Assembly (NCBI GenBank): GCA_902516345.1
Contig: CABXYJ010000002.1
Span: 1-64,000 of the forward strand
Source: an uncultured Pelagibacteraceae bacterium
GTDB taxonomy: Bacteria > Pseudomonadota > Alphaproteobacteria > Pelagibacterales > Pelagibacteraceae
Direction of reading: 5' to 3'
Length of the DNA: 64,000 bases
Position numbers and translations under genes: made by a program. The notes below the pieces were generated by a model. That model saw only the letters and a program-made list of their open reading frames with translations, made no database searches and was not told where the DNA came from. The first letter of the stretch is position 1, and every line of letters begins with the position of its first letter. Positions 24,280 through 31,539 of the stretch are shown piece by piece.

Positions 24280-24365
24280 TGGTGCCCTCGGCCAGACTCG
24301 AACTGGCACTCCGCAAGCGGCAAGGATTTTAAGTCCTTTGTGTCTACCAATTTCACCACGAGGGC
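24280..24365 (-). tRNA. tRNA-Leu (TAA), intact; integration target
   Basis: Class II tRNA, acceptor GCCCTCG/CGAGGGC, anticodon loop CTTAAAA, encoded CCA. Confidence 0.96.
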
Positions 24366-24368
24366 ATT
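24326..24368. repeat. att-like repeat copy A (part of intact tRNA-Leu)
   Basis: ATTTTAAGTCCTTTGTGTCTACCAATTTCACCACGAGGGCATT. Confidence 0.95.
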
Positions 24369-24418
24369 AATGAATTTCATGAGTGTTTATGCCATTATTT
24401 ATAATTGAACAAGATGAA

Positions 24419-24468
24419 TAAGTAAATTTTTTTTATTTTATCTCTCTAGATCCGAGAATGATCCGAGA
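24419..24468. repeat. Unit 1 left subterminal repeat containing GATCCGAGA-at-GATCCGAGA
   Basis: Matches 28687-28736; 32 bp perfect core TTTATCTCTCTAGATCCGAGAATGATCCGAGA (24437-24468). Confidence 0.9.
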
Positions 24469-24509
24469 GTTGTCCTATAAAATCCTATAAGAATATATAA
24501 ATTTAAATA

Positions 24510-24881
24510 CTATCTCCTTGCGTCATCCAACCTTAATGTATCACTGAAATCTTCAGGACCTGGACTGAAACTTGAATACAATACAATAATCAAAAAGATA
24601 ATTGCTACTCCCCAATAAATTGGCCTTAATGGTTTGTGAAATTCTTCTGAGTCTTTCTCACGAGCTTCCCGAGCCTTATAAAATTCTTGTCTTTTTTGAT
24701 TATAAATTCTCTCTAATTCCTCAGTTTGTTCTTTAGTTAAAATCGCTTTTTTATCAAATGGAAAAAGGCCATCTCTTAAATTATATGGATGAAATTGTGT
24801 GAATTCTTTAACATCATCTTCACCATATATCTTGGAATTTTTAGCCTTACTTAATATTTTTTTAAATTTTTCTTTATTCAT
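24510..24881 (-). CDS. Hypothetical protein with C-terminal TM segment
   Basis: ORF track; hydrophobic IYWGVAIIFLIIVLYSSF. Confidence 0.6.
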   Translation of the reverse strand: MNKEKFKKILSKAKNSKIYGEDDVKEFTQFHPYNLRDGLFPFDKKAILTKEQTEELERIYNQKRQEFYKAREAREKDSEEFHKPLRPIYWGVAIIFLIIVLYSSFSPGPEDFSDTLRLDDARR

Positions 24882-25550
24882 TTAAAAATTTTCTACAATT
24901 ATATTTGATAATTCTGTTTTAGAAACTTGAAATTTTTTTTCAAAATGATTTGATAAATTTAATCTTTCTTCCCAATTACTAGCCCTTATTTTTTTTATAA
25001 GTTTGATTGTTTTGTCATCATATTCAAATAAGTAATATGTCTCATTCCAAGGCATTCCAAAAGCATAGCCGACATCGATAAATAACTCATCTTTTCCATT
25101 TTTATTAAGATCTTTATCTATATAAAAATTAATATTTAAATATATTCTTCTATCTTTAAGATGTTTTCTGCCTTTAAAAAAATCAGTTCTAGAGTCGTAT
25201 TTTTCCTCATTTTTATAAAACACTTTAAAATAAGTATCATTCATACCTCGGCATCCATTATTTTCGTAAAAAACCAATTTAACACTGTTGTTTATAGACT
25301 GAGTTAGAATAATTTTTTTAAACCCATCAGAATCATATTTAGTATAGTTTATAGAAGTAAATTTTTTTTTATTAAAATAAAAACAATCCCCAGACCAACT
25401 TATACGCTTATTACTAGAAGGATTTTCATCCATAAATTTAGCAGCTTCTTTGTAATTTTTATAACCATCATCAGCAAAGTCATATTCTTTAGCGAGACTT
25501 ATATTTATTGAAAGTAAGGATAATAGTAAAATAATAAAAAATTTTTTCAT
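24882..25550 (-). CDS. Secreted hypothetical protein
   Basis: ORF track; signal peptide MKKFFIILLLSLLSINISLA; abuts 24881. Confidence 0.6.
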   Translation of the reverse strand: MKKFFIILLLSLLSINISLAKEYDFADDGYKNYKEAAKFMDENPSSNKRISWSGDCFYFNKKKFTSINYTKYDSDGFKKIILTQSINNSVKLVFYENNGCRGMNDTYFKVFYKNEEKYDSRTDFFKGRKHLKDRRIYLNINFYIDKDLNKNGKDELFIDVGYAFGMPWNETYYLFEYDDKTIKLIKKIRASNWEERLNLSNHFEKKFQVSKTELSNIIVENF

Positions 25551-25569
25551 AGTTTAAACATCATTTCAT

Positions 25570-28920: not shown

Positions 28921-28991
28921 TAACTCACTTTATTTATAACTCAACCTAGTAAACAAAAGCAAATTAATATGGTGTATGACTGGTGTATGAC
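28921..28991. repeat. Unit 2 left subterminal repeat containing GGTGTATGAC-t-GGTGTATGAC
   Basis: 71 bp, no gaps, about 60/71 identical to 31322-31392 by hand count. Confidence 0.9.
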
Positions 28992-29175
28992 CCAAGTCAT
29001 CCGAGGGGTCCCAAATGGAAGTCAAAAAAGCTTAGGTTTTTAAAGGTCAATACCCTTAAATATATAAAGGGGTCCCACTACTTTCCCCTGTGTTGAAATA
29101 TTTATATTTTAAAGTTATTCTTATTAATATAATTTATAAAAATTAACTATAAAACAAATCTCTTTAACTAATCAA

Positions 29176-30465
29176 ATGTATATAAAAAAATATTATCTAC
29201 TAGCAAAACATACGCTTTTTCCAATATGCAGAAGTTTAACTGGCGATGGTTTTAGAAAATCCTTAAAAATTATAAAAAAAGAATTTCCTAAATTAAATAT
29301 ATACAAAGTGGCATCTGGAACTCGAGTCTTTGATTGGCATGTACCTCCTGAATGGAATATTAAAGATGCGTATATTTTAGATAAAAACAATAAAAGAATT
29401 ATTGATTTTAAAAATAATAATCTCCATTTAGTAGGATACTCCATTCCTGTTAATAAATATTTTTCAAAAAAAGAACTTTTTAATCATATTCATTCCTTAC
29501 CCGAGCAACCAAAAGCAATTCCATATATTACTTCATATTATAAAAAAATTTGGGGATTTTGTGCAAACCACAATGAAAAAATAAAATTAGAAAAAAACTA
29601 TAAAAATTCAGACAAATTTAAAGTTGTTATAAAATCTAATTTAGATTCAAAGGGCCATTTAAATTATGGAGAATTAATTTTAAAAGGAAAATCAAAACAA
29701 GAAATCTTAATTTCTACTTATTTATGTCATCCTTCAATGGCAAATAACGAATTGTCTGGTCCAATAGTTTCTATGTCTTTAATTAAACATTTTAGTAGGA
29801 TAAAAAATCTAGAAAAAACTATAAGATTTATTTTTATACCTGAAACCATCGGTGCAATTACTTACCTTAGTAAAAATTTAAATTATCTAAAACAAAATAC
29901 CATAGGAGGATACCTCCTAAGTTGTATTGGAGATGACAGGCAATATGGTTGTATGCTCTCAAAATATGGAAATACTCCGTCTGATAAAGCTATTATTATG
30001 GCATTTAAAAGTTTAAAAATTAAATTTAAAAAATATTCTTTTTTAAGAAGAACTGCCGATGAAAGACAATATAACTCTCCAGGGATAGATTTACCAATAG
30101 CATGTATATATAGATCAAGAGATGGTGCATACCCTGAATACCATACATCATTAGATAATTTTAGTTTAGTAACTGAAAGTGGTGTTAAAGGTGGTTTTAA
30201 AGTTGCTAAAACAGCAATTAATATACTCCTTAAAAAAATCATACCCCAAAATAAAATTTTGTGTGAACCAAAAATGGATAAAAGAAATCTTTACCATTCA
30301 TTATCAACAAAAAAAATAAAGAAAATTTATCAACATTATTTGAATTTTTTACAATATGCTGATGGAAAAAATGATTTAGAGAGTATTTCTATTTTATTAA
30401 ATATTAAGATAAGTTTAGCATATAAAATATATAATGTTTTAAAAAAGAAAAAATTGGTCCTTTAA
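29176..30465 (+). CDS. DUF4910-like/aminopeptidase-fold protein
   Basis: LFPICRSLTGDGFRKSL, RVFDWHVPPEWNI, STYLCHPSMANNELSGP, RRTADERQYNSPGIDLP, EYHTSLDN. Confidence 0.8.
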   Translation: MYIKKYYLLAKHTLFPICRSLTGDGFRKSLKIIKKEFPKLNIYKVASGTRVFDWHVPPEWNIKDAYILDKNNKRIIDFKNNNLHLVGYSIPVNKYFSKKELFNHIHSLPEQPKAIPYITSYYKKIWGFCANHNEKIKLEKNYKNSDKFKVVIKSNLDSKGHLNYGELILKGKSKQEILISTYLCHPSMANNELSGPIVSMSLIKHFSRIKNLEKTIRFIFIPETIGAITYLSKNLNYLKQNTIGGYLLSCIGDDRQYGCMLSKYGNTPSDKAIIMAFKSLKIKFKKYSFLRRTADERQYNSPGIDLPIACIYRSRDGAYPEYHTSLDNFSLVTESGVKGGFKVAKTAINILLKKIIPQNKILCEPKMDKRNLYHSLSTKKIKKIYQHYLNFLQYADGKNDLESISILLNIKISLAYKIYNVLKKKKLVL

Positions 30466-30466
30466 A

Positions 30467-31324
30467 ATGAAAATTCTATCTCATAAATTTTTTAATTCTA
30501 AAAAAGAAACTAGTTATTATTCTCAATTATATAAAAAAATTAATTTTAAAGAATCTTATCCAGCAGATGTAAAAAGACTGGAAATCTTTAAGTCACTTAT
30601 AAAGAAACATAAACCAAAAACTATAGTTGATGCCGGATGTGGAGCAGGTATGCCATTAATTCAAATAAAAAAAATGGGATTTAATATTACTGGTTATGAT
30701 AAAGCAAAAAATATGGTTAATGAAGCAAAGGCAAATTTAATTAAATATAAACTCCCAGAAAAATTAATTGATATTGGGAATTTTGAAAATCCAAAGCATA
30801 TAAAAGATAATTCAATAGATTGTATTTTGGGTATGGGAACTTTCTATTACTCAAAAAATTTTATCCAAACATTAAAAAACCAAAGAAAAAAACTAAAAAA
30901 AAATGGAAGATTAATTTTTTCATTGAGAAATCAATTATTTGATATTGCTACTTTAAATGATTATTCAATTAAATTTTTTTCAAATTTATATGAAATAAGC
31001 AAAACTAAAAATACATTAAAAAAAAAATATTTAAGATTATTTCAAGGATATTCTGATAGAAAAAAATTTAAATTAAAAAACATTGATGACAGCCAAGTTT
31101 ACTCTAAAACATATAATCCTCTCACAATTGAAAATCTAATTTTGAGTAAAGTAGGACTAAAATGTAATGGAATATATTTTTATCACTTTCACGCCTTGCC
31201 TCCAATATTTGAAAATATTGATAAAATTAATTTTAGAAAGCAATCTTTCAAGATTGAAAAACCAAATGACTGGAGGGGTTTTTTTATTGCCTCTGGTTTT
31301 GTCATTGACTGTCAAAAAAAATAA
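30467..31324 (+). CDS. Class I SAM-dependent methyltransferase
   Basis: TIVDAGCGAGMPLIQIKKMGFNITGYDKA; 1 bp after the preceding gene. Confidence 0.85.
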   Translation: MKILSHKFFNSKKETSYYSQLYKKINFKESYPADVKRLEIFKSLIKKHKPKTIVDAGCGAGMPLIQIKKMGFNITGYDKAKNMVNEAKANLIKYKLPEKLIDIGNFENPKHIKDNSIDCILGMGTFYYSKNFIQTLKNQRKKLKKNGRLIFSLRNQLFDIATLNDYSIKFFSNLYEISKTKNTLKKKYLRLFQGYSDRKKFKLKNIDDSQVYSKTYNPLTIENLILSKVGLKCNGIYFYHFHALPPIFENIDKINFRKQSFKIEKPNDWRGFFIASGFVIDCQKK

Positions 31325-31392
31325 CTCGCTTTATTTATAACTTAACTTGTTAAATTAATACAAATTAATTCGGTGTATGACTGGTGTATGAC
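31322..31392. repeat. Unit 2 right subterminal repeat containing GGTGTATGAC-t-GGTGTATGAC
   Basis: Direct copy of 28921-28991, starts at the stop codon of the methyltransferase gene. Confidence 0.9.
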
Positions 31393-31518
31393 TTTTGTCT
31401 TATTATCTTTTGCTTCCATAACTATGAATATAATTATGACAAACTAGATAACTAGGAATTACAATGGTTCTGGGTCGCCAGGGGTCAGTGAGGTTTTCTT
31501 AAATTCTCTTGATAGAAT

Positions 31519-31539
31519 ATTTTAAGTCCTTTGTGTCTA
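31519..31539. repeat. att-like repeat copy C (21 bp core)
   Basis: ATTTTAAGTCCTTTGTGTCTA identical to the first 21 bp of copies A and B, then diverges. Confidence 0.85.

What the first reader, a model, noticed from the sequence alone, without database searches (positions are those of the whole stretch)
24326..31539. Two tandem insertions at tRNA-Leu(TAA), defined by three copies of an anticodon-arm att core
Seen directly: ATTTTAAGTCCTTTGTGTCTA occurs at 24326 (inside the intact tRNA), 28861 and 31519. Copies A and B stay identical for 43 bp, covering the whole 5' half of the tRNA plus ATT. They divide the region into units of ~4.5 kb and ~2.7 kb. In tRNA sense the core is TAGACACAAAGGACTTAAAAT, which spans the 5' anticodon stem and the loop. 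Tyrosine recombinases are known to use tRNA anticodon arms as att sites. Inference: these are stacked small integrative elements; neither unit contains a recognisable integrase, so they would be mobilised in trans. Marine tRNA-targeting cargo elements such as the tycheposons of Prochlorococcus are the nearest concept I know; whether these belong there is untested.
Basis: partly seen in the sequence, partly recalled or inferred. Interest (0 to 1): 0.9.

Follow-up and report, generated by a model that had tools for sequence, protein, structure and literature searches.

The report
Integrase-less cargo cassettes stacked at tRNA-Leu
In the ocean's most abundant bacteria (SAR11 family), small packets of genes that carry no integration enzyme of their own pile up behind one tRNA gene, and each packet carries a short repeated DNA 'word' at both ends that looks like the docking site telling which borrowed integrase may move it.

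Summary
In detail: ATTTTAAGTCCTTTGTGTCTA occurs exactly three times (24326, 28861, 31519), far above chance. The two units (4,535 and 2,658 bp) are stacked integrated elements. Each also has, just inside its cores, its own 9-10-bp word repeated in tandem at 11-bp spacing, the same word at both ends but different between units. Across 53 units from related genomes, 43 left and 44 right ends have such a pair (about +122 and -146 bp) against 1.6% of control windows, and left and right words match. Only 2 of the 53 encode an integrase. Those two, one in G202 and IMG/VR contigs (one circular) share the attP layout and encode a lambda-type integrase of 515-550 aa whose N-terminal arm-binding domain varies with the word and is swapped between otherwise near-identical integrases. 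Three helper words recur exactly in cargo-only units. Transfer between species and different occupancy at one site are shown. Copy C is atypical: a core fused to a chromosomal TGTCTA site. Best explanation: trans-mobilised passengers of integrase-bearing satellites, addressed by arm words; excision in trans was not observed. The system also occurs at tRNA-Ser(TGA) and in another genus. I found no published description; new variant of a known kind (CIME/CALIN-like hitchers).

The parts
24280..24365 (-). intact tRNA-Leu(TAA), the attB gene
   Evidence: ARAGORN
24326..24368 (.). core copy A plus tRNA 5' half (43 bp, identical to copy B)
24369..24440 (.). sequence upstream of the tRNA supplied by unit 1; same backbone as upstream of the tRNA in many relatives, probably carries the tRNA promoter (inference)
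24449..24468 (.). unit 1 left arm word pair GATCCGAGA-AT-GATCCGAGA (11-bp spacing)
24510..28600 (-). unit 1 cargo: ORFs 24510-24881, 24882-25550, 25570-26010, 26130-27158 (HTH + GIY-YIG, MUG113/T5orf172), 27164-27511, 27508-27732, 27806-28600; the rest without a convincing family
28717..28736 (.). unit 1 right arm word pair GATCCGAGA-AT-GATCCGAGA
28818..28837 (.). 10-bp tandem repeat CATTAGAGAC x2 between arm and core (possible Xis or core-side sites; inference)
28861..28903 (.). core copy B plus tRNA 5' half: right end of unit 1 and left end of unit 2
28970..28991 (.). unit 2 left arm word pair TGGTGTATGAC x2 (11-bp spacing)
29176..30465 (+). unit 2 cargo: DUF4910/DUF2172/HTH_47 protein
   Evidence: E 1.7e-84
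30467..31324 (+). unit 2 cargo: class I SAM methyltransferase
31372..31392 (.). unit 2 right arm word pair GGTGTATGAC x2 (11-bp spacing)
31519..31539 (.). core copy C, fused at TGTCTA (31534-31539) to chromosomal flank GGTAGGAC; no tRNA 5' half
31540..34810 (.). older variable segment shared with L117/L119 (about 85%), absent from L164, where the distal core is followed directly by the window's 34.8-kb flank; no core found at its right edge

Best explanation
Units 1 and 2 are integrase-less integrative elements (passengers). Shown: each is bounded by tRNA-Leu cores; each brings a replacement tRNA 5' half; each carries at both ends a tandem word at near-fixed distance from the core (together the layout of an attP with arm sites when the ends are joined). 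Inferred: a lambda-type tyrosine integrase made by a satellite-like helper (the 515-550-aa family in G168, G120, G202 and IMG/VR contigs), with its excisionase, binds the arm words and recombines element and tRNA, so the passenger moves in trans. The core is common to all and sets where they insert; the word differs and decides which helper integrase can act, because helpers' arm-binding domains diversify and are exchanged as modules. Successive insertions at the same core build a stack, newest next to the tRNA. Copy C arose by recombination between a core and the chromosomal pseudo-site TGTCTA. How DNA passes between cells (phage particles, vesicles, transformation) is not known.
For: Cores. 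Family-wide stacks: 64 of the 149 core-bearing genus genomes have 2 or more copies (my count from the table); also other genera and single-contig genomes of 1.2-1.46 Mb. Words: 43/53 left and 44/53 right ends against 1.6% of interior windows, spacing 11; left-right match within a unit 18.6/20 against 15.1, best of 20,000 permutations 16.2. Integrase in only 2/53 units and 9/399 genus genomes; PF00589 in 42 genomes otherwise finds chiefly one Xer-like gene elsewhere. Helpers: L038 (circular contig), L133, L152, G202. Words of L133, L152 and L074 helpers found in 3, 5 and 1 cargo-only units; letter-permuted words average 0.17, 0.00, 0.05. Arm domain follows word: same word 95% arm/94% rest; different word 75/94 and 50/95; 236 homologue pairs with at least 90% identical catalytic part average 75% in the arm (min 38), and converse pairs are 100% arm/53-59% rest. 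AF2 N-terminal fold matches lambda Int and P4-like arm-binding domains. Mobility. Unit 2 ends resemble the G202 integrase element (76%/70%); unit 1's exact word recurs in a cargo unit of genome G517.
Against: No circular form or excision junction of a cargo-only unit was seen (reads could not be searched). No integrase with the words GATCCGAGA or GGTGTATGAC was found. Five other tRNA-Leu helper words (ACCCTAG, TTACTAG, GTGGAAC, GGCAACT, GGTAACT) match no cargo unit in the set of 53. In G202 helper and neighbouring cargo have different words. Arm function is read from architecture, not binding data. About 15 of 53 units lack a clear pair at one or both ends (decayed or another system), and the g2 and g12 loci examined mostly lack them.
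Confidence: 0.8

Rival explanations
1. The units are dead remnants: deletion derivatives of satellites or prophages that once carried an integrase and are now fixed, with stacks rearranged by homologous recombination between tRNA-half repeats.
For: Some distal cores and words are decayed (L105.1, L112.0, L132.0). Mini-elements of 251 and 267 bp look like internal deletions (L197; L123).
Against: Most words are intact and identical at both ends; a 2.94-kb cargo unit is 97% identical between hosts 76% identical in the flank, at another stack position; no phage structural families among the commonest cargo families; cargo with intact ends far outnumbers helpers, hard to keep by decay alone.
Confidence: 0.12
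2. The host's own near-universal Xer-like recombinase (about 306-325 aa; L004 in this genome) moves the units.
For: It is the only tyrosine recombinase found in the host assembly and is present in most of 42 stack-bearing genomes.
Against: It is short, in the size class of arm-less Xer proteins, and common to the genus, whereas words vary per element; integrases with arm domains sit next to attP of the same layout.
Confidence: 0.04
3. The units are mobilised by integrating pelagiphages of the HTVC105P type, which use the same tRNA-Leu(TAA) half.
For: HTVC105P and S35-C6 carry the exact core plus 5' half next to their integrase.
Against: Their attP shows none of the 11-bp-spaced word pairs, the flanking sequence differs, and their integrase (297 aa) is only marginally similar to the 545-aa family.
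Confidence: 0.04

Closest known systems
CIMEs (cis-mobilizable elements) and tandem accretion, e.g. Dehalococcoides ssrA islands (PMC5704250, PMC3146451)
   Same: Flanked by att sites, no integration or transfer genes, stacked in tandem at one tRNA/tmRNA gene
   Different: Here both ends keep a word pair of their own, the word differs between neighbours, helpers are rare and usually not adjacent, and helpers are primase-integrase satellites, not ICEs
Tycheposons of Prochlorococcus and related claims in Methylophilaceae (PMC10872708; the original paper known to me only from memory)
   Same: Marine streamlined host, tRNA target, cargo genes, tyrosine recombinase in the autonomous forms
   Different: The window units encode no recombinase; units here have a median of 2.7 kb; the helper's clade was not compared with the tycheposon recombinase
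CALIN: integron cassette arrays lacking an integrase (PMC11389934)
   Same: Arrays of small integrase-less cargo thought to be moved in trans by an integrase elsewhere
   Different: Boundaries are tRNA cores with arm words, and the helpers are lambda-type integrases, not IntI with attC
Additive flexible genomic islands with tRNA-end repeats (tRNA-Lys, PMC10872708)
   Same: Recurring tRNA fragments delimit the island
   Different: No arm words or helper integrase were described in the passages read
Integrating pelagiphages (tRNA-Leu(TAG) users in PMC6811365; HTVC105P here)
   Same: Same host group; HTVC105P shares the tRNA-Leu(TAA) attB and direction
   Different: Full phages with a different integrase and no word pairs

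Membership tests
CIME | bounded by attL/attR of a common core | tested here: met
CIME | no integrase or transfer genes | tested here: met
CIME | mobilised together with an adjacent related ICE/IME by accretion | tested here: not met
   no integrase element next to the window units; in G202 the adjacent helper has a different word
CIME | att sites functional | not testable with these tools
   needs a recombination assay or junction reads
Tycheposon | encodes the hallmark tyrosine recombinase | tested here: not met
   no recombinase in either unit
Tycheposon | integrates at a tRNA gene in a marine streamlined bacterium | tested here: met
Tycheposon | recombinase belongs to the tycheposon clade (for the helpers) | not tested
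   no tycheposon reference sequences were at hand
Integron/CALIN | attC folded sites and IntI | not tested
   not searched for as such; boundaries are tRNA cores with arm words and the helpers are lambda-type integrases
Prophage or phage satellite (window units) | phage structural or packaging genes, or a satellite replication module | tested here: not met
   no such family in the window units; PHROG scan of 126 cargo proteins lists no capsid or terminase among the 25 commonest families
Substrate of a heterobivalent (arm-site) tyrosine integrase | arm-type repeats on both sides of the core, recognised by the integrase N-domain | tested here: inconclusive
   layout, covariation with the arm domain and fold agree; binding not measured

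The most novel reading that the evidence does not exclude
An address system for mobile DNA: a common tRNA core fixes where elements insert, while an exchangeable arm word at both ends fixes who may move them; helper integrases trade arm-binding domains as modules, and a large population of integrase-less cargo in the SAR11 family is partitioned among helpers by word.
Probability: 0.6. Interest if true: 0.9.

Novelty: new variant of a known kind. Interest (0 to 1): 0.8.

Why it matters
SAR11 genomes are streamlined and poor in recognised mobile elements, so how their flexible genes move is open. This gives a concrete, widespread route at one tRNA, with restriction systems, GIY-YIG proteins and metabolic genes as cargo, and a readable label (the word) that predicts which integrase moves which element. 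It makes trans-mobilisation testable with sequence alone (junction reads, word-to-arm-domain pairing) and in a simple recombination assay.

Tried and rejected
Scans of viral contigs for the exact unit 2 word pair, the left backbone and the right backbone found nothing. The one hit for the unit 1 word (L140) is a GC-rich unrelated contig, a chance match. The host Xer-like gene as mover and HTVC105P-type phage as mover: see rivals. L109 was first taken as an empty site but its left flank does not match nadK of the relatives, so it is not used. A degenerate core at the right edge of the 31540-34810 segment was sought and not found. Literature searches found no description of such words or of this locus; only openly licensed papers were searched.
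Full report
OBSERVATION. The 21-bp core occurs exactly three times in the window and in the host assembly, with a shuffle expectation of 0.01. Copy A is inside tRNA-Leu(TAA) on the minus strand; A and B are identical for 43 bp, C for 21 bp only. The two units are 4,535 and 2,658 bp. Unit 1 has GATCCGAGA in tandem at 11-bp spacing at 24449-24468 and again at 28717-28736; unit 2 has GGTGTATGAC in tandem at 28970-28991 and at 31372-31392.

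THE LOCUS IN RELATIVES. A core search of 201 genomes of the same genus found it in 149; 64 of these have two or more copies by my count of the table, mostly on one contig, in one orientation, 0.3-15 kb apart. One genus member is the genome AG-903-K07, titled uncultured Pelagibacteraceae, so the host is a SAR11-group bacterium. Stacks also occur in other genera of the family and in genomes assembled as single contigs of 1.2-1.46 Mb, so assembly error is not the cause. I took 40 loci, later more, and oriented them like the window. In nearly all the proximal core is in the tRNA, and most distal cores keep the tRNA 5' half. Just beyond the 5' half many units carry about 65 bp of one backbone, the same that follows the distal core on the chromosomal side; it probably holds the tRNA promoter (inference).

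THE WORDS. In 53 units, a 9-bp tandem pair matching at 8 or more positions at 11-bp spacing is present in 43 left and 44 right ends, against 1.6% of 2,120 windows from unit interiors; other spacings give little (at most 17%, spacing 10 at left ends). Positions cluster tightly at +121 to +124 and -143 to -148. Left and right words of one unit agree: mean best similarity 18.6 of 20 against 15.1 for other units, best of 20,000 permutations 16.2. About 27 left words were seen. The same layout holds at tRNA-Ser(TGA): about 9 of 128 genomes have two or more cores on one contig by my count, and of the ten loci examined (nine of these plus G326) most show words at about +113 and -138. It also holds in genus g4 at tRNA-Leu, less clearly in g2 and not in g12.

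WHO MOVES THEM. Only two of the 53 units encode a relative of the integrases used as queries: L133.0 (G168) and L152.0 (G120). A third such element in G202 sits at the tRNA, followed by a cargo unit, and G326 has one at tRNA-Ser(TGA). In 399 genus genomes 9 have a relative of this integrase, far fewer than have stacks. PF00589 in 42 genomes otherwise finds mainly one Xer-like gene of about 306-325 aa at other loci. IMG/VR contigs L038 (7.8 kb, core at both ends, so probably circular), L074, L084 and L090 carry the same integrase and attP layout; L038, L074 and L090 also carry a 780-aa primase-helicase (DUF5906 and AEP in L038) and a small RusA-like protein. L079 and L083 are larger contigs with a related 515-aa integrase and words TGGGCAACT and TGGGTAACT. 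These are the candidate helpers.

THE CODE. L038 and L090 share the word ACCCTAG and are 95% identical in the arm region, 94% elsewhere. L074 (ATCCTAG) is 75% and 94% to L038. L079 and L173 (the latter the same contig as L083) have words differing by a base and are 50% in the arm region and 95% elsewhere. Among the database homologues (119 found), pairs with at least 90% identical catalytic part average 75% in the arm, down to 38%; conversely P0003 and L133 are 100% in the arm and 59% elsewhere, and P0047 with P0077, P0078 and P0080 100% and 53%. So the arm domain appears to be exchanged as a module. AlphaFold2 with 56 sequences (mean pLDDT 84) gives a three-stranded sheet and helix at residues 73-125; Foldseek finds lambda Int first and the arm-binding domains 3rmp, 3jtz and 3ju0 lower in the list. 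Words of three helpers (L133, L152, L074) recur in 3, 5 and 1 cargo-only units; letter-permuted words average 0.17, 0.00 and 0.05. Five other tRNA-Leu helper words match none, so the pairing is partial.

THE WINDOW UNITS. Unit 1 ends are 94% and 85% identical to those of cargo unit L131.0, and its exact word GATCCGAGA occurs in a cargo unit of G517 (L203). Unit 2 ends are 76% and 70% identical to those of the G202 integrase element, including GGGGTCCCAAA after the left word and GGGTCAGTGAGG..GAATA before the core, with another word. No integrase bearing either window word was found. The host assembly has only the Xer-like gene, but is 77% complete.

MOBILITY. L102 unit 0 and L122 unit 1 are one 2.94-kb element, 97.0% identical, in hosts whose left flank is 76.4% identical, at different stack positions. 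L119 equals L117 plus one exact 4,541-bp insertion at the core (right side 91.5% identical; left flank 80%, so these are not sister strains). L121, L122 and L130 have different units between flanks that are 84-93% identical, and L107 (1.8-kb cargo) and L152 (8.8-kb helper) share a site with flanks 89% and 94% identical. Homologous cargo genes also occur with different words, so cargo and ends reassort.

COPY C. In L117 and L119 the window's flank beyond C reads AAATGTCTAGGTAGGAC, while the window has TTTTAAGTCCTTTGTGTCTAGGTAGGAC. The simplest reading is recombination between a core and this TGTCTA pseudo-site, losing the original 5' half; the direction of change cannot be fixed from three sequences. 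In L164 the distal core and its upstream backbone are followed by the window's sequence from about 34.81 kb, so 31540-34810 is probably an older acquisition too, without a recognisable core at its right edge.

CARGO. Families include type I restriction methylases and specificity subunits, Mrr- and GmrSD-type proteins, EcoRI-type methylase, GIY-YIG proteins, N-terminal methylation (pilin-like) proteins, trypsin-like proteases and metabolic enzymes; no capsid or terminase is among the commonest families.

WHAT IS SHOWN AND WHAT IS NOT. Shown: boundaries, words at both ends, lack of integrase, interspecies transfer, helper elements with the same layout, arm-domain divergence and exchange. Inferred: that words are integrase arm sites, that helpers act in trans, that words decide helper choice. 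Unknown: the transfer vehicle. Compared with CIMEs, CALIN and tycheposons the units work alike in part but fail a defining feature of CIMEs (adjacent mobiliser) and tycheposons (own recombinase). I therefore file them as a new variant of trans-mobilised hitchers. Literature searches in the open library found no account of this, which is not proof of absence.

Noticed in passing
L095 (HTVC105P) 3001-3045; L096: Cultured pelagiphage HTVC105P and phage S35-C6 carry the exact tRNA-Leu(TAA) core plus 5' half between integrase and RNA polymerase, so phage and cargo share one attB.
   Followed up: partly
window 31540-34810: Older variable segment (two large ORFs, 31955-32947 and 32952-34691) between copy C and the ancestral flank at about 34.81 kb; no core at its right edge.
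   Followed up: partly
L197 cores 2783 and 3034; L123 cores 2989 and 3256: Mini-elements of 251 and 267 bp; L197 holds a single word pair between two cores, its word identical to that of the G326 integrase element.
   Followed up: partly
L189-L197, L153: The same stacking with words occurs at tRNA-Ser(TGA), up to four cores in G171.
   Followed up: yes
L135 unit 1 (5.7 kb): Array of ten related ORFs of about 100-190 aa; related proteins sit in other units, and 13 cargo proteins in all match the pilin-like N-terminal methylation motif.
   Followed up: no
L160 (G193) 15.5 kb and L201 (G385) 15.2 kb: Unusually long units; no integrase of this family found in either locus.
   Followed up: no
L145 (G158): Integrase of the same family next to tRNA-Ser(GCT), possibly a third target gene.
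   Followed up: no
L212 (g12): Two complete tRNA-Leu(TAA) genes about 1.45 kb apart in one genome, possibly an element carrying a whole tRNA.
   Followed up: no
L038 2367-2660: 97-aa protein encoded near the integrase, no Pfam hit; looks like a small HTH excisionase by eye (a 92-aa counterpart in L133).
   Followed up: no
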